A DNA stretch of 64,000 nt, from contig OX387203.1 of assembly GCA_947561715.1 (NCBI GenBank), forward strand, positions 1,302,001 to 1,366,000, in the 5' to 3' direction. How positions within the stretch are numbered: position 1 is the stretch's first letter; each line of letters opens with the position of its first letter. The DNA is from Ascidia mentula (lineage: Eukaryota; Chordata; Ascidiacea; Phlebobranchia; Ascidiidae). The translations under genes were made by a program, and so were the position numbers. Under the pieces are notes generated by a model that was given only the letters and a program-made list of their open reading frames with translations, had not been told where the DNA came from and did no database searches. Positions 8,455 to 61,242 of this stretch are shown piece by piece.

Positions 8455-11400
8455 ATGACAATGAAACAAATTACTTTTCTTTGCCTTTTCATGGGTTTGG
8501 TCCAAAGAGGCACAACGAAAACAAACAAACAAGGTATAAATGCATTAAAATAGTGAAGCGAAAAATGTTGACGAACAGTATTAACATAGATTATCTGGAC
8601 TTAAGTTTCAACATCGAGATAAAATAGTTGTTTTGGCTTCATATCCATTGCCCCTTTAATTTTGTTGTATCCTTGTAATACGCTTTAAAACTGCAAAATA
8701 ATTAAATTGTGTAGAGTCCAATTTGTGGGCATGTTGATTAATAAGAATACAAAGCACAATTGTTCATCTATTTTCAGATTTGGCACTTTTTTGCGATGAT
8801 AACGGGACAGAATACAAGTTCTTCACGAAACACATTTCACATCAAAACGCGTCCGACGTCTGTGGTTTGTTTGGTGGAAAACTTGCGTCACTGGAAAGTT
8901 CCGAAAAAGTGGGTTTATTTCAAAATAAACAACATAGGGAGACGATAAAGCTCGTATTCAGATCTTAACAATGCGACAAACGATATTTTTATCCTGGGGA
9001 GTCCATTTTGTTTTTATTCAATGAGTAAACACTGGGCTTTGTGACGTAGCTCCAGCATCAAATAGAAATTGAATTTAAGCCAAAACACGCAGTGTCAAGA
9101 ACTTGGTGACTCACTGTATTTAAATTATTCCCTTATCAGCAAACAGTGCAGCTGTTCCGATGCTGGAAAAGCACATTCGAGGAAAGTTCAAATTCGCTGA
9201 AATCGGAATAGGAAATCACTAATTACCGATTTGTGCCAATTGTTTTGCCTGCTGGGTTCCGGAGCCGATATCAATAAACTTATTTTTTCTCTACCGGAAT
9301 ATTGGGAGGTTGTTAATTACATGAATGTTGGGGGACAGTTTGTAGCGCTTCGAGCTATCGGAAGTATCAGCACTTCCACCTAATTACAAACAAACTTTGT
9401 ACAACTGGAATCTAACAAATGCAATGCGTTTTATAGGTTTTTGATAATTCTTTTCCTTGACACACAATATTGAGCAAAACTAGTTGGATTTAATGATTTG
9501 AATATTGTTTTGATTCGGATTTTAGATGTTCAAACAAAATTAATGGTATCCCATTATTTTTAGATCAAGTTCATTCGAAAGAAAATAAAAAGTTTCGGAT
9601 TGAATCAAGCTGTTGTGGGAGTCAGACACACAAAGTATATAAATTTTACAAAATAACGTGGAATTTGTTTCGATATAAGTTTCTGATTTTAATGTCGATT
9701 ATTAAATCACACGTGCATAAATTAGTTTCAGTTTACGTTGATACAAATTTTCTGCGACAACGAAAAAATACACCTTTACAAAAATAATATTAAACTTTGT
9801 AACGGACAAAAACCTTCCCTCATCATTTCAGATGGGGCCAACTCCAACACATGGATGGAAGTGCGTTGAACAAAGAGGTGAAAAAACATGTCGAACCGTA
9901 TCACGTGATTTTCGCCTCAAATTTACTCCACGAGATGAGTGTTGCTCTGAAACTCTCTGAAGATTCTGGACATGGGAGAGGATTTCTTTGTCAGAGAAAA
10001 TCAGGTATGAGAAGAAAGTTTTGAAAATAACGTCAAAATGACGTAAGTTTGCGATTACTTTGTTCCAGTGCTTAGCGAAACTCTACACTTCCAAGTTTAA
10101 ACAAATGAATTTTTTGCAAGTGCGCTGCTTGAGACACGTAAAAAACACGTACAACTTTCAAAACACGGTGATTTGTTAGTCACAAAGTGGAAGTCTTTGC
10201 TTGGCCGTTTGGTCAGCAAAGTCGTCTGATAGTCACGCCAGCTTGCAGCGTACAAATTGAATCCCCGGTCGGCTGCTTTACTGAAGCTAAAATCTGCTTG
10301 CGTGTTCTTGCTGTATTGGTTACTAAGTTCGAATCCGTGGCAGACTTGTTTATTAATTGAAAGACACGATTGCAATACCAGGTGGCTAAAGTTTAATTTG
10401 GTTCAAGTTCGTTTGACAAGAGTTTAACACGTGACAGAACTGCAGCGAATTAACTAACAAAAGAACGTGCGAACGTTTACAGCGCGACGGCGATAATAAC
10501 GACAGGGCCGAGAGAGTACGAGCGACCAAGAGAGTAGACTATAGACTAGACTGTCGAAGGATTACGAAATGGGCGTTTTATAACGAAGTGTCAGAAAAAT
10601 GTGTTGTCCAGCAGGATGCCAGAAAGCTTGTGGGAGCTCCTGCAGGAAAGCTTAACACCGTCTGCAGTCTTCGGTCCGTATGTGTTCCAAATGTGTAAAG
10701 AATTAAGTAGGGAAACATGCGTGTTGCTACAAGCTGCACTGATGAAACCTTTTAGGTCGAAACAGTGGCCATCTGTCTGCAGTTTATACACATTTTATTA
10801 GTCAATTTGAATCCGGTTTACCTGAAGTTTTCTGTATATCATCAAATTAATTTTGAAAACATGGAACTCCTGTATATAAGCGTATACCGCAAGAATTATA
10901 ACGTAAGTGTATACTGACGTACAAGAATTGAAACCCTGAATTTCCGTGCAAATAAATTTTATGAAATCGTGTGATGAACTGGCATTCTTAGTATGATACA
11001 AAATATCGTCCCGAATCAGGGATCACGTCACTATGTGTTATCACGTGACGCGAGGCGCGGGAATATGCAATCTGCGGTTGATAAACGTCAACGGGTTTGC
11101 CGATATTACGTCAGATACACGCGGTTACCTTAGGTCGATCAACAGTGCATACGGGTTATTCCCGGTCAAATGGGTGTTTTGATGGAAACATCCGCCTGGT
11201 TATTTAAAACAGCTTAAAATGTCCAAAAACAAATTTAAAACAGCAGACATCGCGATTAAGGAGGCTGTTGGCATATTTAGGGATTATGGTTGGTGGTAAA
11301 TTGGCAAACAAATGTGGCATTTACTGCTTAAACTCCAAAGTATTGCTGTAAATTGGAACTAAGTATTGGCCACTGGGATATATGGTAAATTACCAATGTT

Positions 11401-14400
11401 CCTCAGGTGAAGAAAACATAAAGATATCCCTAATTTAAAGACATTGTTGTCCTACATCAAGCCGCTTGTCCACCGTTGCCACCGAAATAACCTATGTGGG
11501 TGCAAATGTTTTAAAATATATTTCTTCTTTCAGGAAACGGAAGCAGTGTTTGTGTAAAAACCATCGCCAGAGAAAAAACACCATCGTCCCTTACTCGCAA
11601 AACTACATCAGACCTAGGAAGAAATCCGGAACCTGGCAAAAGAAGAAACGCGACGAAAACAGTGAAGTTATTCCAGATATTCACGCCAGAGCAAATCGAG
11701 ACACAAAAACAAATCGTACTGGAAAGTTTTGAGAGGCATTTTTCAACCTTTCTGCCTCGCAACAGAAATTCAACACCCCCAAAGCAGCATTTGCAGATGT
11801 TGGCAAAGAGGGATACAACACTGGGTATTGGGAACAACTCGGAAGTTGTAACTCAAAACCAAAATCAAAGTTCCACGGACAATGCCAACGACGAAATCGC
11901 CACTTTTGGGCCAAGATTTAACGCTAGCGACGAAACAAACTATTTGCATCAAGATGCTGATACGAATGACTCTAATGGCAATAATGCGAACGGTTTTGAC
12001 GAGGATTCAGCAACTGTTGGGTTTGCCACGAACAAATTTCGTTCGGAATATTCAGATCAACCGGATACAGGTGGTTCTCAAACCAACTCCCACGTCTTTA
12101 GACAGACAACGAATACGTTCAACCAAAGTTCCACCAACAACCAATCTACTATTAAACTCAAATCACCGCCTCCGCCACCACCCAACTATTTAAACATTCC
12201 CGCCATCGTTAAACAAGTAAATCTTCATCAAACACTCCCCCAAGCATCGGAATTGTTGAACAACATCAGCTCTGTACTGGAGGAACCTGTTGACGGCGAT
12301 TCCCCCGACGTGCAACCGATCACGCCGGAAGATTTACTCGATATCGGGGAAAGTTTGCTTCCCAAACTGGCGCCGGTTTACGTTAGAAAACCACCTCTTG
12401 ATTTTAGCGATTCAGTCGAGGTACGGGACGTTTCATCAGTTGAAAGCATGCCTCGCGTTAAAGTGAACCTGCAGTCATTTTTTTCTATGCATAAGACGAA
12501 GTTTTCAAAAATGTTTGCGGAGATAACGATGCATAAACTTTTTATATGGGAAACACTGGTTGCAATTTCGTTGTGGGCCACAAAACGCGGCGGTGCACCT
12601 ACAAGATCTTGCTGCAGTTTAAAGTTAAAAACATTGTCACACAGTTCCAGTATTTACTGTTGTGAAATATATTGTTCAGTGTCAATTACGCAAAAACGGT
12701 AAAATAGTTGATTCTGATAAAATTTTGCCTCCAAGCAAGTTTCAAAAGCATTCTTATCCAATATGCTGTAACAATATAGTAAAAGAATGTCTGCAGTGCA
12801 CTGTAAAATCAGTATTGGCTCTACTGCTTATAGTAAAAGGATATTGAGATAATTTTTTAATCCCAATTATGTAGGATTCAGCAGCAGAAGATGATGAGAT
12901 CACACAATACGCCCTCAGCTTCATGAGGATCACTAGCAACTTGCTCAACCCAATCAACACTGAATCATGGAAACAAACAATCTTGACACAAAACAAATCG
13001 CGCCAAGGTGAGTCTGCCTGTTATTTCTATGTTGTAAAAAGCTTCAAATAGTTGTCGTCCTTGTAAGGTCTGTTGCAATCCAAGATTGGCTTCAGCAAAT
13101 ATACCAAACGTTTTGTGAAAGATATGTGCAAAAAAAGCCATGATATTGGCGAGCTGCAGACAGGGGTGTACACGCACTGTTTCGACCTGTGATAAGGTAT
13201 CATCAGTGCAGCTGTTGACTATGACACTGTGCTAGGTTTTACACTAGCGGGCACACTAATTTCTACTTTGTGGTATCGTGCCTGTCAACGTCGATCTATT
13301 GGTTACCCTATAAAGGGTACCAAAAGCTAGCACAGTGCCACTGTCAACAGCTGCACTGATGAGACCTTACAGGTCGAAATAGTACATGTACACACCCTGT
13401 TTTGTAAAAGTATATACAATCAGTTTTGTTTTCATTTATTTTACTCAAACAAACAAATTTGTAGACGCCCTGACGCCCTCTTCGCTGATGGAACAAATGG
13501 ACACAGTTCTAGAATATTCTGTTTTATCCTTGACCCAAAAGTCGCGACAAAACTTCGCGTACTCGAGTGACGTAATAGATGTTAAAGTTGAATACATGGA
13601 AAGGAGGCGGGATGTTCTTGTTGAAGTTCAAGCCGACGGAAGTTTATCTCCTCAAACCACCTTAAGGCGGAAGGAAAGATCCTTGAGCAAAAACCAAACC
13701 GAAGACGAGCTTTTAACAATCGTGACGGCGAATTACAAAAGCGCTGCGCGCATTCTGGAGACTTGTGTTGACGTCTCGACGGCTAGTCTCAGACAAGAAC
13801 CTGCAGACTTGTCCGACGTCGACAATACAGGAAATGCGTGCGCGCGAAACGGAATATTGGTGACCGATTCACTATGTGAACACATGTTCGACAACATGAC
13901 GTCACCACCCAAAGCCGTATGGTCCTTTCCTACGTCATCAAACGTTCTTTCAATCACAGCGTTCGACGGTGAACGAAAACAGAACATCCCGGTGAAGTTC
14001 CACATCCGGGAGACTGAAAAACATCCGAACGTCACAAATCACGTGACTAAGTGCGTTTATTACGACACAAACGAACTTCTCTGGTCGGATTTCGGTTGTA
14101 GTCTGGTGACGCAATCCGGAGATGGGAATTACTCGTGTCGTTGTAATCACACGACCAACTTCGCCATTTTACTTCTCGTCCCCATTACGCAGGAAACTTT
14201 CACGTCATCAGTAGACAACCACGCGGTTTCTCCAAGCAACGAACTTTGCGGAACCACTTTACAGGTTTATTACATTAATTGTTTGCCAAATAAATAGCAC
14301 ATTGTGACGCAACTGCCTTCTGTTTTTGTAAAATACTTTTTATGAAATTTTTTTGCAGCAATTTTGTCTGTTAAAGGCTTATTTTGTTGAGGGTGATGAA

Positions 14401-28744: not shown

Positions 28745-35887
<7,143 letters not shown>

Positions 35888-46400: not shown

Positions 46401-46457
46401 ACTCAAATGAATGATGTTCACATAATAAGGACATGTGTCAGATTCCTTGCGTTTAGA

Positions 46458-46600
46458 GCTGCATATAAGGGTGTACACACTATTTTGACCTGTAAGGTCT
46501 CATCAGTGCAGCTGTTGACTGTGGCACATGGTGCTAGCTTTTACACTAGCAGGCACACAGATTTCCACTTGTGGTAACTTTCCGTTAGGTACTCAACTGG
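46458..46600 (-). mobile_element. Left half of the 13.15-kb palindromic element, hammerhead core damaged
   Basis: On the minus strand GCTGCA, CTGATGA (46506-46500), perfect stem II GACCT/AGGTC and TGCAGC (46463-46458) are kept, but the GAAA box reads AAAA. That changes the invariant G12, so cleavage is not expected. The interior (GTTGACTGTGGCAC, CTAGCTTTTACACTAGCAGG, CACACAGATTTCCAC) matches the left half of the 60.1-kb element. No right half follows. Confidence 0.6.
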
Positions 46601-50780: not shown

Positions 50781-53700
50781 ATGTTTCTCTCCATTGTAAG
50801 TTCGATATCGTCCTATCTCACCGGCTGGTGGTTATTAGGGACCATCACCTTGTTGCTCTTCATAAAATGGTACAAAAAACCCTCAAACTTCCCTCCCGGG
50901 CCGAGGGGAATTCCCATATTGGGTGTACTTCCATTTGCGGGGAAGTACCCGGAAAGGGCGATACGTTCTTGGGGTTTGAAGAAACACGGACCTGTGATGT
51001 CAGCTAGGATGGGATTTGAAGATGTCGTTTTCCTCAACAGCTATTACTCGATATATCAGGTATGTTAAAAAATGTCATCCAGACAACAGGTATCACCTTG
51101 TTTGCTAGGTGGTACCGACGGATTTATCTTATCTTGTCAGGTATCGAAAATAACTGACAAAGAATGATGGACGATCAGCGTCAGAGCGATCTTTTATTTA
51201 CAAATTGAGATGCCGACAAGGCGAAATTAATATTTCTGTGTATAATTTTAAATAAAAGCTTGCATTGACGCAGATCGTCAATCATTCTTTGTGAGTTATT
51301 TTGGATATATCAGGTATGTTAAAGTTTGACGTGGAAGCATTGGCGTAACCAAGGATGGATTTGCCGTATCCCCTTTCAAATATTTAAGCTGAAGATGAAT
51401 AAATTTAGTTTTTTTGTAAAATATTCAAATTGTGGTTAGATGTTTGTTGAAATGTTTAAATCTGTCAGACTCCTTTGGTCGTTTTCTTGTTCGTACGGCG
51501 ATGTTTAAAAACAATAATATTCACTTGCTTAGATTATTTGGCCCCCACTAGCATTTCAAGAATTGTGTCAGAAATAGTTCGGTAACTTATATAAATACGT
51601 TAAAACTAACGTCAACATAATAGAAGATGCCAGCAAGGGTTTTGCAAGCGTCAACATTAACGTAATACGTAAACGTCACCAAAAAGAGATGAAAGCTTGG
51701 CGTAATGAAAACTAAATATTTTTAAACTCTTTATTTCGTCACACGACAGACACACACAGGATTAATTGTTTTCCTTCAGGGATTCGTGAAGAACAGCGCA
51801 ACGCTTTCCGGTCGCCCAGACATCGGCATGTTGCAGGAAATTGCACAACACAAAGGAATTATTATGGTCGACCACAACAACTACCACAGGGTTATGAGAC
51901 AATTTACATCCACAACATTGAAGCAGTACGCGTAACATACACGTAGTGTATACTCATCATTAAGTTTGGTTGTACAAATAACGTAGACCAGTGTGGTGAG
52001 GAAATTTGAATGCCCAAAAACCTCTGCCTGTTTTTTAAAAATACTTTCTTTGTTAGTCGAAATTTCTGTTCCGTGTTTCCTGATATGTAAAAACCTTGCC
52101 GAAACTTCTTTCAACCATAACAATGTTAATAACAGTATGGGCCAGTCTTTTTTATTCTTAGACTTGTGAAATACCTTACGTTTATTGAGATCAGTTTATA
52201 AACCAGATTTAATTTCACTTCACCCAACTTCAGGTTTGGTTTCGGAAAAAGCGAATTAGAAGAAGTTTGTAACGATGAAGTCGACAAGCTCATCCTAAGG
52301 TTGCGAGATAAAGTTGGATTGCCCATCGATCTAACGGTAAATTCCTTCAGGTTTCAGAATAATGTATTATCAGCATCAGTTTTCAATAACGCCACAAAAA
52401 TATAAATGTTGGTCTCGTATATGTTTAAGGTATAAGTTTGACTTTGAAGTAAACGGAATGCTTGTAAAAGGTAAGATTCATATTCCTTGCGTTGTAGTTT
52501 TGACCCAAGTGGAGTAATCGTTATTGGCATTTTGTATTTTGTATAACCTTAAAGTAATAATGTTTCATGCAATGGCATGATTGGCAGGGTCTCCCTACTG
52601 CGCAGGTCCTCACTCAGCGATCACAGTTATCGTATATCTGGGCTGCGGAGCCTGTAAACCATAGCATATAGTTAAGTATAAGATCGTCGTCCGCTCCATT
52701 TCGAATGATACGTTGGGAAAGTTTGGCGACGACTTCGTGCAAACACACAAACACCATCGTGACATTCGCCATTTCGAAATAGACCCGATACATGCTTGGA
52801 ACAGTATAAAATCCCCCAATACACAGACAGGTCTCGTCAATCCAAAATACTGGGTTCGTCATACAATGCCGGTTTAGATAATCCGGATTAACGAAGTCTG
52901 ACAGTAAACGTGCAAACAGGGCCTATAATCACTACAAGTTGCACTGATGAGACCCTAATAGGTCGAAACAGTGGCCCTGTATGTATCTTACTATAAATAT
53001 ATATAACAAACCCGTTCTATTTTATTTCTGTGAGATGCAGACACTGTTCCCACTTAAAATCCACCTGTCTGCAGCTCGCATAATTGTTTTTTGTTGATTT
53101 CCAACAGACGGATCTTAGTCTCGTTACTGGTAACATGGTATTCAATTTGATGTGCGGCAGAAGGTGTGATGTTAACGATCCGACGTTTCGAAGATGTATT
53201 TGGCTCGTCCACAAATCGTAAGTAACAGGTCTAGACCAGGGAGGTGTTGAACCCGTTTAATGCTGTGGGATGGATCTCACTCACTAACCTAAACAACACG
53301 TCTTAGTGGGCCAGATTGTAGGCCAGCGGGGCACCAGTTTTACAACTTTGGCCTAGACTTTCGATGTACCCCAAAATAATTTAAAGAAAATTGTGAATTA
53401 TCTGAACTCTTATTTTCGTACGCATGTCTGATCGCACAAATTACAGCTGTGGATAAAAAAACGTTTTCAGATTCCATGCGGCATTTGTCTGTTTATCAAG
53501 CTTTGAATTTCTTCAATTTTTCGAAATCAAAATTCCGGCAATAAATTTCCACAAATTCGATTTTTTATAGCTTTGCAAACACGGAGGATTCTTTTTATTT
53601 TTCCATGCTGACCATGTTCTACTCTCTTCGATTCCTTCCGCCGTTTCGTGGCGCTAGAGAGCGTTGGTTGCTTTATCAAAGCGAACTGATGGGTAAATTG

Positions 53701-57378: not shown

Positions 57379-60300
57379 ATGCTCTTAGACTACACGGTAA
57401 GTGGACTTGCCGTCTTTATAACTTGCTGCCTGTTGTTGTTCCAACGATGGTGGAGAAAACCCCATCCCAAATTTCCTCCCGGACCGAGGGGAATTCCCAT
57501 CCTTGGGATGCTTCCCTTTCTCGGCGAATTCCCGGCTCGTACAATTAAGCAAATGAGTACGGAGAAATACGGTCCGGTGATGTCTCTACGATTTGGTGGC
57601 GAGGACGTTGTGATTTTGACCAATTGGAAAGCCCTGAACCAGGTTGGGTTCCATTCATATTTTGCACTCTTGCACTTTTACGACATGCATCCTCTTGTTC
57701 TGACGTGGGTCATTATATCTGTGTTTTTGTCAGTTTTACTTGAAAAGGCGATACACTGATGATGCCGTTTGACAGGCGAAATATATACAAAACGACCATG
57801 TAAGACAAACGACTGAGGATTTTCATACAAAAGCTGTGAAAACAAATTTGTTGCCAAGTCTATGTTAAATATAGCTACTGGGCTCCTATGCCTGCGAATC
57901 TAATGCTCTCCACACGATAGCTGTGATCGCCAAGCAAGGACAGTGGGGCGACCCTGCCTTGTCACCACACTTCTGCAAGGCTTCATTGGGCCTAAAATTT
58001 ATCTGTGTTCCATTGATTTTCAGGCTCTGGTGAAGCAGGGTTCACAATTTGCCGGTCGACCCTTCGTAGAAATCTTCAGCAATGTGACGGGAAACAAGGG
58101 GATCCTCTTCAAGGATTACGCGGACGATTTTAAAGCAATGAAACACTTCGGTTTGCGAACTTTGAGAGAGTAAGGATGTATCTCTGTGACTCCCAAAGAT
58201 AATAAGCTGTATCTGACAATAAAGTGTATCTTTATTATGCAGTGTTTATGTATGTATTTATGCAGCAGTCATTCATTCAGTTTATTATTGCAAATCGTTT
58301 GTGATCTTACAGAAAATTACCATTACATGGGCACCAAACTCGATAACCTGTTTTGTTTCGGTGCCTATGTCGCTTTACTTTTTGTATCGTTTATTTGCTT
58401 GTCTTTTGGGCAACATAAACATAATCAGACTGCAAAAAGGAATCATAAAGTTATAATAGAGTATTTTATATAGCGGTAATTGATTATGGCAAACGGGTAT
58501 TTGGGCTACAGTTGAACCTCAATCCGGATAAATCGAATCTAGATTAACCGATTTTTACTTATATATACGTGCAGTCTAATCATGGTATATTTTTACGAAG
58601 ATACGGTCTGGGCAAGACACGAATGGAACAAATTGTCCACACAGAAGCAGATTACTTCTTGGAATTTATCACAAGCAACATCGGGAAGCCACTTGACCTC
58701 AAGGTGAAAGACACGAACGAATAATTTTTCGCGAAATTCTCACGATAAAAAATATAAAATGGTTTTCCGAAAACTCTGTATTGTTTTAGAAATATTTGTT
58801 TAATTTGACGGGAAACATCACATCTCAAGTAGTGTGGGGAAAACGATACGAATACGACAACACTCGGTTCAACGTTTTATTGGAGGACTTAAAGCTGATG
58901 TAAGACCCATGATATTTGAAATAAATCCGTTATAATTGCTGATTTCGATACGCATTTTTCCTTTACCTTTCTTAAACATTCAACAGTTTTGTGTGATTGG
59001 TTTCTGTGCTTAATAATTTTGTGCAGTCACCACATTGCCAGTAACAACACAAAAAGTAATGTATATGTTACGTTGCAAAGAAGCATGTAGCATATGTATT
59101 TCTTTTGTTAGTTGCATACATGAGTTGTAAAACAAAATGTAACGTAGGATTGTGTTTTTATTTTTTTGCACACCAACCTTCTTTTTAATAATTTGTTCTG
59201 ATTTCACAGGTTCGGCGACTTAGAGGACGGTCTATATACATTCTGGGTTTATTACTCACCCAGACTAAGCTGCTTGCCGGGTGGATTTAAACGAGCTTAC
59301 AACAACTTCATCAACCGACAACACAGCTCTGTTGGTGGGTCTTATGTGTACCTTTTGTTTTTTTGTGTGTTTACGTCAGGGGTCGGAACTTGTACAATGT
59401 AATTGCATTTCATACGTGCGTAGACGTTGCATATTTGTACGTGATTTGAGTGCAAGCGTAAACTTAAGGCGTTTATTTTTCAGAATTTATGAAGGAAGAG
59501 GTAGCCGAGCATCAGAAAGCGTTCAACCGTAACGACCTAAGGGATTTCATGGACGCCTACATTTTCGAACAGAAACATGGAAATGAGGCGAACAAAAAGT
59601 TCTTTACGGTGTGTGTGAACGCCGATCTTTGGCTACATGCCATGACTGACCACATTAACAAACAACACAAAATATGTGTTATGGTGAAATAGCTGAACTA
59701 ACGCAAAGCCTCTCCTTAGACCTTAGTTTCCTTTAAGGGCTAGATATTTTTAATGTACTTGCCAAGTGTCCAACTTCTGTCCATTACCGCTATTAACATT
59801 TGCTGTTATATTAACATATGTCAACATTATGTTGCAGGATGATCAGTTGGTTATGTACGGTAAGGATTTGTTCATAGCTGGAACCGAAACGTCCAGTACA
59901 ACCCTTGCCTGGTCCTTTCTCCATTTGTTGCATCACCCCGAATACGTGGATATTATTGAGAAGGAAATCCAGGAATCAGTTGGCAAGAAATTCCCAAACC
60001 AATTTTCCTAATTTAAAAAAAAAATTGTGTTTCGTGCACAAAACAACGTAGATTGTATGTGCGAAAAGAGCCATAACGATAATTGAGAGCTGCTGTATAC
60101 AGGTGTACACACTGTTTTGACGATTAAAGATCTTATGAGTGAAGCTTGTGACTGTGGCATTGGTCTAGCTTTGAACTAGTAGGCACACAGATTTCCTCTT
60201 TGTGGTACCTTCCGGTTAACGTCGATACTGTTGGGTACCCCACTTTTGCACATTTGGGTGAAGCCCGATTGGAGCACCATCCAAGCAGCCGTTTGGATAT

Positions 60301-61242
60301 GGTGCGCTCAAAGCACGGTGGTTCGTTGTTTGGAATCCAGATGGGTTGCCAACGGATTGACATTACCCGGAAGGTATCACAAAGTGGAAATCAGTGTGCC
60401 AGCTAGTTTAAAAGCTAGCCCAGTGCCACAGTCACCATAGCTGCACTGATGAGACCTTATACGCCGAAACAGTGTGTACTACTGTCTGTAGATTTCAACG
60501 TAAATTGCATTCATCCAACGGTGACATTTACGGCGAGACTTGTCGACCTCTAGTTATTTGATATCGTATGTCTTCAGGCTTCAACGGTGTTCCTTCAATG
60601 TCCAAACGTGATGAGATGCCGTTCATTTGTGCCTTCCTACACGAGATAATGCGCATTAAGACCTTAGTGCCCCTGACCGCCCAACACAAAACAACTGAAG
60701 ATTGCTATCTCTTTGACTATGTCATCCCTAAAAATACGACAGTGAGTCAAAGGACACTATGTTTAACCCGAACATTGGGTAGTTTTTCCAGCTTTTCTTC
60801 TTTACGTAGTAGACCATCCAAGTAATAAAATAGCCCGTTAGAATACACACGTGTGTGAAATGGCACACGACATAAAAATAATAAACGTACTTAGACAACA
60901 TTTAATAAGTTGTGTCAACATTTCCAGGTAATCCCGTGCCTGTGGGGCGCCCACATTGACCCGGATATATGGAAAGACCCTGAGAAGTTCGACCCCTATC
61001 GCCACATTGATGGGAACGGAAAGTTTGTGGCTTCAGATAAGATTGTGCCCTTTTCGATGGGTCAACGTTTCTGTCCCGGGGAAGGTTTGGCAAAGGTCGA
61101 GGTGTTCGTTTTCTTCGTGAAAATCATGCAGAAGTTCAAGTTTCGGTGCGCGCCCGAGAATATCCCCACCCTCGACGGCTTGCTTACAACTATATACGTT
61201 CCAAGTGCACTGGAAGTCGTGTTTGAGGAACGTCAGATATGA
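57379..61242 (+). CDS. Microsomal cytochrome P450 (CYP2-clan-like), tandem copy 2
   Basis: Nine exons, all in phase, 498 residues: 57379-57642, 58024-58169, 58601-58703, 58790-58899, 59210-59334, 59484-59608, 59838-59982, 60578-60741 and 60928-61242. Exons 3, 4, 7 and 8 have exactly the lengths of those in the upstream copy (103, 110, 145 and 164 bp), so the pair is a tandem duplication. Landmarks: anchor VFITCCLLLFQ, hinge FPPGPRGIPILG, I-helix AGTETSSTTLAW, K-helix EIMR, heme loop FSMGQRFCPGEG. The more standard AGTETS motif differs from GGGLETT in copy 1, hinting at different oxygen or substrate handling. Intron 7 appears to use a GC donor (TTG/GCAAGA at 59983) and contains a palindromic hammerhead element. 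Confidence 0.92.
57756..57781 (+). ncRNA. Hammerhead-like motif, flanks not convincing
   Basis: CTGATGA (57756-57762), extra U, GCC/GGC stem II with an eight-base loop and GAAA (57778-57781). The flanks TATATACAAAA do not give a clear stem I or cleavage site. Probably a relic of the same subtype as at 42.7 kb. It lies in P450 copy 2 intron 1. Confidence 0.35.
57890..57970. repeat. SINE module fragment
   Basis: CACACGATAGCTGTGATCGCC and CAGTGGGGCGACCCTGCC match, in minus orientation, the non-tRNA head found at 40.44 and 52.56 kb. No tail is visible. It lies just upstream of the exon 58024-58169 acceptor. Confidence 0.5.
60089..60492. mobile_element. Long version of the palindromic hammerhead element, in P450 copy 2 intron 7
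   Basis: The left end (60089-60145, minus) is a decayed hammerhead: stem III and cleavage side are visible but the core reads ACTCATAA and the GAAA box AAAA. The right end is the better copy at 60439-60492. The interior blocks GGCACACAGATTTCC, TTTGTGGTACCTTCCGG on the left recur inverted as CCGGAAGGTATCACAAAG and GTGGAAATCAGTGTGCC on the right. It is about 150 bp longer than the 13.15-kb element in the middle. No open frame of note. Confidence 0.68.
60439..60492 (+). ncRNA. Hammerhead motif, type I, weak stem II
   Basis: AGCTGCA, CTGATGA (60446-60452), GAAA (60466-60469), stem III CAG/CTG (60470-60472 with 60482-60484), GUC with cleavage after 60486, then TGTAGA pairing with GCTGCA over five positions. 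Stem II (GACCTTATACGCC) has lost two of its pairs, so folding may be poor. Confidence 0.52.

What the first reader, a model, noticed from the sequence alone, without database searches (positions are those of the whole stretch)
13153..13400. Palindromic element carrying a self-cleaving ribozyme at each end, facing outward
Seen: two inverted hammerhead copies frame a palindromic 250-bp unit; the left one keeps a six-pair stem I, GUC cleavage site, stem III and full core. Known: type I hammerheads occur in Penelope-like elements and in circular-RNA-producing retrozymes, usually as direct repeats. Inference: here the opposite orientation means that a transcript of either strand would carry one active ribozyme near its 3' end plus the antisense of another, which could trim read-through RNA or generate defined ends. 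This arrangement is not one I know as described.
Basis: partly seen in the sequence, partly recalled or inferred. Interest (0 to 1): 0.82.

Follow-up and report, generated by a model that had tools for sequence, protein, structure and literature searches.

The report
Back-to-back copies of a ribozyme retroelement
The palindrome is one old copy of a very abundant, roughly 290-base animal retroelement that carries a self-cutting hammerhead RNA motif, and the way its copies sit in the genome suggests that they were pasted in from both sides of a cut at once, as Penelope-type jumping genes may do.

Summary
The inverted pair is real, but both ribozymes in this copy are damaged, and the borders are wider than reported: 13122-13398, between 12-bp target-site duplications (TSDs, one mismatch). 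Genome-wide the family is huge: 1490+1471 core matches, 0 in the control. By motif and fold, the family ribozyme is a complete type I hammerhead.

The basic unit is a 290-293-bp monomer, also found in direct tandem arrays: a non-LTR retrozyme. Palindromes are two copies joined head-to-head within one insertion. Three rules: (1) in two spacing bins, 68 pairs face outward and 1 inward; (2) TSDs cluster at 12 bp; (3) in 19 of 19 events with a clear TSD, one end stops 2-14 nt past the ribozyme cut and the other carries a 24-42-nt "tail". One array, --+++, was read whole inside a single TSD pair.

GIY-YIG endonuclease genes (Penelope-like, PLE, candidates) show the same orientation bias (19:0). The one PLE whose ends I read has a 12-bp TSD and a one-sided tail. 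Best explanation: two-sided target-primed reverse transcription of retrozyme RNA by PLE machinery. The parts are known; the combination was not found in the papers searched.

The parts
13122..13398 (-). whole palindromic retrozyme insertion (277 bp); the tail-bearing arm reads on the minus strand
   Evidence: borders set by TSDs
13110..13121 (.). left target-site duplication GTTTTGTGAAAG
   Evidence: TSD score 8, below the threshold of 9 used for the 19 counted events
13399..13410 (.). right target-site duplication GTTTTGTAAAAG (1 mismatch)
13122..13324 (-). left arm: 203 nt of unit C from about u129 through the ribozyme, the cut and the tail
   Evidence: alignment to the unit; BLAST map
13122..13158 (-). 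tail: 37 nt beyond the hammerhead cut, present at this end only
   Evidence: offset 37; 89% to unit A positions 1-37
13152..13213 (-). left hammerhead, cut expected after 13159; G10.1 changed to U, 3-nt insertion in loop II
13322..13398 (+). right arm, without tail, ending 3 nt before the cut
13349..13398 (+). right hammerhead, truncated: stem I 3' strand and cut site absent
13322..13324 (.). head-to-head joint of the two arms (matches overlap by 2 nt)
60056..60495 (.). second, older palindromic copy in the window; tail at left, none at right; TSD CAACGTAGATTG (60044-60055) / CAACGTAAATTG (60496-60507)
   Evidence: arms by BLAST; TSD found by eye, letters checked
46455..46585 (-). single-arm fragment of the same family

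Best explanation
A non-autonomous retrozyme of about 290 bp with one type I hammerhead per unit is inserted by PLE-type machinery. Shown: monomer units, direct tandems, outward head-to-head pairs, TSDs of mostly 12 bp and exactly one tailed end in each palindromic insertion with a clear TSD. Inferred steps: oligomeric transcripts are cut by the hammerhead and may be circularised; a PLE reverse transcriptase/GIY-YIG endonuclease makes a 12-bp staggered cut in AT-rich DNA; both 3' ends prime DNA synthesis on retrozyme RNA, one at a start site about 36 nt past the ribozyme cut (giving the tail), the other about 10 nt past it (no tail); each cDNA runs inward for part of a unit or for several units; the two cDNAs are joined head-to-head and the gaps filled, which duplicates the 12 bp. 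The outward-facing ribozymes are a by-product. The copy at 13122-13398 is an old, inactive example.
For: Units of 291, 293 and 290 bp in tandem; direct pairs at unit spacing 62+54, control 0. Outward pairs 34 + 34 against inward 0 + 1 in the same two spacing bins (against 97, 91). In the 100 listed of 116 direct-dimer links, strand switches inside arrays were 7 minus-to-plus and 0 plus-to-minus. L091 is --+++ inside one TSD. Of 57 mapped insertions 32 run minus...plus and 21 of these have a TSD score >=9; dropping two segmental duplicates (L010, L016) leaves 19 events, all with one end at 2-14 nt and the other at 24-42 nt past the cut. Mismatched flank pairs reached score >=9 in 7 of 400 and >=11 in 0; 17 of the 19 reach >=11. 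TSD lengths: 12 in 10, 13 in 4, 11 in 2, and 9, 10 and 14 once each; AT 0.78 against 0.62 in the window. Same genome: adjacent GIY-YIG places within 10 kb are -+ 19, ++ 7, -- 1, +- 0; the one PLE whose two ends I read has TSD TTGTATAAAATA and a 34-nt tail at one end only. Published in vitro work: a PLE protein cleaves and extends both strands and starts at two adjacent internal sites that bound the tail (PMC11167929, main text read). The two arms of an insertion are more alike than arms of other insertions of the subfamily, 10 of 5000 permutations.
Against: No RNA data: circular RNA, self-cleavage and transcription are untested. No PLE with the retrozyme's own tail sequence was found, and none was searched for systematically; the PLE read here (L102, L103) has a different tail. 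Not all GIY-YIG places were shown to belong to PLEs. Covariation in the ribozyme stems is null. No genome copy among those scored reaches an Rfam hammerhead cut-off, best 26.7 and 29.9 bits. Some insertions have one arm only and are truncated at the other end (L015, L022, L044, L093), so two-sided priming is not obligatory. Locus sampling favoured palindromes, so no rate is claimed. A first, badly filtered version of the arm test kept 4 insertions and showed nothing (1019 of 2000).
Confidence: 0.8

Rival explanations
1. Foldback or MITE-type DNA transposon with terminal inverted repeats that happen to hold hammerheads.
For: Long inverted repeats and a fairly constant 12-bp TSD.
Against: In the 19 events with a clear TSD the two ends are never equivalent; direct tandems and one-armed truncated copies exist; arm lengths vary freely. 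No transposase was searched for.
Confidence: 0.04
2. Self-priming: one strand (antisense RNA, as proposed for rotifer Penelope, or the first cDNA) folds back and copies itself, giving a palindrome that is then inserted.
For: Proposed for Penelope inverted repeats (PMC3846280, passages); arms of one insertion resemble each other.
Against: Fold-back of a target-attached cDNA would copy the tail and flank onto both ends, yet the second end stops short at a separate start site; arms are unequal with joints at many unit positions. Antisense-RNA self-priming is not excluded.
Confidence: 0.12
3. Palindromes arise after insertion by inversion, recombination or a second insertion into a first one.
For: The family is very abundant, so secondary events must occur (inference).
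Against: A single TSD pair encloses the whole palindrome in 19 events, including --+++; outward to inward 68:1 in two spacing bins.
Confidence: 0.02
4. The units are solo terminal repeats (pLTRs) of an unfound PLE rather than an independent retrozyme.
For: Same architecture as PLE ends; PLE-like genes with 2870-bp tandem spacing sit in the same genome.
Against: Same-strand runs of up to seven links (eight units) at about 283-293 bp without a coding spacer; longest stop-free frame in a dimer 70-120 aa. A derivation of the retrozyme from a pLTR remains possible.
Confidence: 0.1

Closest known systems
Metazoan non-LTR retrozymes (Cervera and de la Pena 2020, PMC7229834; Results part 1 of 3 and Discussion read, main text searched for terms)
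   Same: type I hammerhead, roughly 170-400-nt unit, GC below 50%, direct tandems, thousands of copies, TSD longer than 4 bp, coexisting PLEs
   Different: that paper describes tandem direct repeats; a term search of its main text gave no inverted, opposite or head-to-head arrangement and no tunicate or ascidian ('palindrom' only for a tetraloop)
Penelope-like elements with inverted pLTRs (Adineta vaga, PMC3846280, passages read)
   Same: head-to-head inverted terminal repeats, optional 31-bp tail on one of them, TSD
   Different: autonomous, with an ORF; TSD 8-10 bp in the cases quoted there, mostly 12 bp here; authors favour self-priming
Poseidon PLE of Anolis (PMC11167929, main text read)
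   Same: two adjacent internal start sites bounding a tail; both strands cut and extended; AT-rich target
   Different: in vitro work on one PLE; retrozymes not studied in the main text; its hammerhead was not needed for insertion in vitro

Membership tests
type I hammerhead ribozyme | core CUGANGA...GAA, A15.1-U16.1, H17, stems I-III with 5' and 3' ends in stem I (definition recalled) | tested here: met
   family sequence folds so; strict descriptor met in 44 of 97 loci, 0 in 19.2 Mb Markov sequence. Met for the family, not for the two window copies
type I hammerhead ribozyme | Rfam RF00163/RF00008 gathering score | tested here: not met
   best 26.7 (cut-off 34) and 29.9 (48.5) bits among the candidates scored in the genome; RF03152 33 of 56.3 in ten loci
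type I hammerhead ribozyme | compensatory changes in stems | tested here: inconclusive
   80 of 96 extracted copies counted (I left out 16 that looked degenerate or wrongly cut); 2 both-side changes, reached in 248 of 500 shuffles
type I hammerhead ribozyme | self-cleavage | not testable with these tools
   needs RNA
metazoan retrozyme | 150-450-bp unit with hammerhead in direct tandem | tested here: met
   290-293 bp; 116 direct links
metazoan retrozyme | no protein-coding ORF, GC below 50% | tested here: met
   GC 0.474-0.481; longest stop-free frame in a dimer 70-120 aa; these frames were not searched against families
metazoan retrozyme | TSD longer than 4 bp | tested here: met
   mode 12 bp in 19 palindromic events
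metazoan retrozyme | small circular RNA | not testable with these tools
   needs RNA
Penelope-like element | ORF with telomerase-like RT and GIY-YIG endonuclease | tested here: not met
   no frame over 120 aa in the unit dimers; GIY-YIG genes exist elsewhere in the genome
Penelope-like element | head-to-head repeats, one-sided tail, TSD | tested here: met
   PLE comparison
foldback/MITE DNA transposon | equivalent terminal inverted repeats at both ends | tested here: not met
   one tail per insertion, 19 of 19

The most novel reading that the evidence does not exclude
Two reverse transcriptases, one primed from each strand of a single 12-bp staggered cut, start at the two adjacent start sites of one and the same circular retrozyme RNA and chase each other round it. 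That would force exactly one tailed and one tailless end, give multi-unit arrays in both directions inside one TSD, and make arms of one insertion share template variants.
Probability: 0.3. Interest if true: 0.78.

Novelty: new variant of a known kind. Interest (0 to 1): 0.58.

Why it matters
How PLEs insert is poorly known, and the proposal that PLEs move animal retrozymes has rested on shared hammerheads, tandem layout and co-occurrence (PMC7229834, Discussion). This family gives thousands of short, readable insertion products whose ends record the start sites, the cut stagger and the joint. The strict one-tail rule links retrozymes to PLE machinery structurally and turns the integration mechanism into a testable question.

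Tried and rejected
Rfam at gathering thresholds found no hammerhead in the window, and none of the scored genome candidates passed; relaxed searches gave sub-threshold hits. microRNA-family hits in the palindromes are below cut-off and reflect a long hairpin; rejected. Covariation as proof of the ribozyme: null. The PLE partner: I did not run a search by tail sequence; the one PLE unit junction read (L102) has a different tail and N-terminus, so the partner is unknown. Foldback transposon, later inversion and fold-back of cDNA were considered and rejected as argued. The first arm-similarity script filtered wrongly (4 insertions left, 1019 of 2000) and was replaced (20 of 22 listed insertions; L045 and L047 dropped for lack of a core pair). 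RVT_1 places as orientation control gave 5 close pairs: -- 3, ++ 1, +- 1, -+ 0 (146 of 150 listed places entered, four on small contigs left out; 150 of 1254 candidates had been scored).

Full report
What is there. The window is C71:1302001-1366000 of a 196-Mb genome in 79 contigs. Adhesion-GPCR, P450 and MYND-finger exons point to an animal; I think a tunicate, from genome size and gene content, but no call shows this. At 13122-13398 lies a 277-bp element between the direct repeats GTTTTGTGAAAG and GTTTTGTAAAAG. It lies just upstream of the GPS-motif exon of the receptor; its last bases overlap the stop-to-stop frame that holds that motif. Its left arm, read on the minus strand, is 203 nt and ends in a 37-nt tail; its right arm is 77 nt and has none. 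The arms meet at 13322-13324.

Ribozymes. The family sequence AGCUGCA-CUGAUGA-GACCU-UAC-AGGUC-GAA-ACAG...CUGU-C|UGCAGCU folds into a type I hammerhead as its minimum-energy structure, -19.2 kcal/mol; this energy is not unusual against shuffles (z -1.58). In the window copy the left arm has U for G10.1 and 3 extra loop nucleotides, and the right arm stops before the cut; neither folds as a hammerhead, and the strict descriptor finds nothing in the window. The descriptor is met on both strands in, for example, L002, L003, L005, L007, L019, L092 and L095. Stem changes among 80 of 96 extracted copies look like decay, not compensation: 92.7% of cells pair, with 2 double changes. So the ribozyme claim rests on the complete conserved core and three stems, not on covariation or Rfam scores.

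The real unit. Tandem loci give units of 291 (L091), 293 (L093) and 290 bp (L025) from cut to cut, GC 0.47-0.48. A 34-base core pattern with up to 3 mismatches has 1490 forward and 1471 reverse matches, control 0. Direct pairs at unit spacing number 62+54. This matches non-LTR metazoan retrozymes (PMC7229834).

How palindromes are built. With exact 12-base anchors, outward pairs number 34 (gap 126-156) and 34 (gap 95-125); inward pairs number 0 and 1. Other spacings were not searched. Among the first 100 listed perfect cores, 86 clusters hold 9 outward, 5 same-strand and 0 inward close pairs. In the 100 listed direct links, arrays switch strand only from minus to plus, 7 of 7, for example -------++++ at C70:2.551-2.555 Mb. 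One such array, L091 (--+++), was read in full and lies inside a single 12-bp TSD.

End rule. Of 57 insertions mapped, 32 run minus...plus; 21 have a TSD score of at least 9; two are segmental duplicates; 19 remain. All 19 have one end 2-14 nt past the cut and the other 24-42 nt past it. If the ends were independent and alike, exactly one tail would occur at most half the time, so 19 of 19 has p of at most about 2e-6. Copies below the TSD threshold, L003 (5 and 38), L019 (10 and 38), L021 (10 and 38, flank like L019), L029 (31 and 9) and the window copy (37 and -3), look the same but were not counted; L004, L030, L032, L064, L077 and L088 gave no usable TSD. The second palindrome of the window, 60056-60495, also shows a 12-bp TSD with one mismatch and one tail, found by eye with the letters checked. 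Samples: L001-L030 were best matches to the window palindrome, L031-L090 came from Rfam scores, L091-L097 were chosen as multi-core clusters, so frequencies are not estimated.

Link to PLEs. The genome holds many GIY-YIG places (134 reported, 150 of 382 candidates scored); those I looked at in L007, L099 and L101 sit in Penelope-like frames by my reading, the rest were not checked. Adjacent pairs within 10 kb are -+ 19, ++ 7, -- 1, +- 0, and C67:6.134-6.147 Mb repeats the --+++ layout with 2870-bp spacing. The ends of the PLE at C72:15.0158-15.0207 Mb show the TSD TTGTATAAAATA; the right end stops at a point that is position 136 of the unit junction L102, the left end at position 170, so the left carries a 34-nt tail. 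In vitro, a PLE protein cuts and extends both strands and starts at two adjacent internal sites that define the tail (PMC11167929). Rotifer Penelope has inverted pLTRs, a tail on one of them and 8-10-bp TSDs (PMC3846280). The same signature in the retrozyme is the strongest evidence here for who moves it. I did not find the specific PLE.

Arms share templates. Over 20 insertions, own-arm differences sum to 198, against a mean of 248 for arms swapped within subfamilies; 10 of 5000 permutations are as low. This fits two cDNAs from one RNA, but gene conversion would do the same.

Novelty. Searches for retrozyme with inverted orientation (0 papers), hammerhead with Ciona or tunicate (one tunicate paper, PMC8704543, reports 9 type I loci in Didemnum, passage), Penelope with twin priming (3 papers listed, none opened), and retrozyme papers since 2021 (22 listed, of which PMC11722881 and PMC8969392 were searched for terms) showed no description of palindromic retrozymes. 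Only open-licence papers are held. A curation guide says retrozymes may rely on PLEs (PMC8969392, passage).

Function. A palindromic copy cannot release a unit circle, since that needs two ribozymes in the same direction; arrays with two or more direct units can. I regard palindromes as frequent, mostly inert insertion products whose transcripts would be long hairpins. This is inference.

Noticed in passing
window 10710-10770 (+) and 52937-52973 (+): A second hammerhead class with a short stem III (ACAGUGGCC...CUGU); these match the 290-bp family only in the ribozyme core. Rfam-selected loci such as L031, L064, L068 and L074 carry it.
   Followed up: partly
window 60056-60495: Second, older palindromic retrozyme close to P450 exons, with the same TSD length and one-tail signature.
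   Followed up: partly
window 32859-32932 and 34926-34999 (-), and L091 from about 221: Two related tRNA hits in the window and, by eye, a similar tRNA-like stretch next to the retrozyme array in L091; perhaps a tRNA-derived SINE.
   Followed up: no
G000:C67:6134028-6146916: Five GIY-YIG places in the order --+++ at 2870-bp spacing; four of the five lie in open frames of 885-892 aa, so a tandem, possibly intact PLE array.
   Followed up: partly
G000:C70:2551335-2554765: Largest array in the listing: seven minus links then four plus links at about 291 bp.
   Followed up: no
unit positions about 85-143 (units A-C numbering): By eye, inner ends of many long arms and truncated single arms fall here, near a GGTACC...GGTACC hairpin; it may be a reverse-transcriptase pause site.
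   Followed up: no
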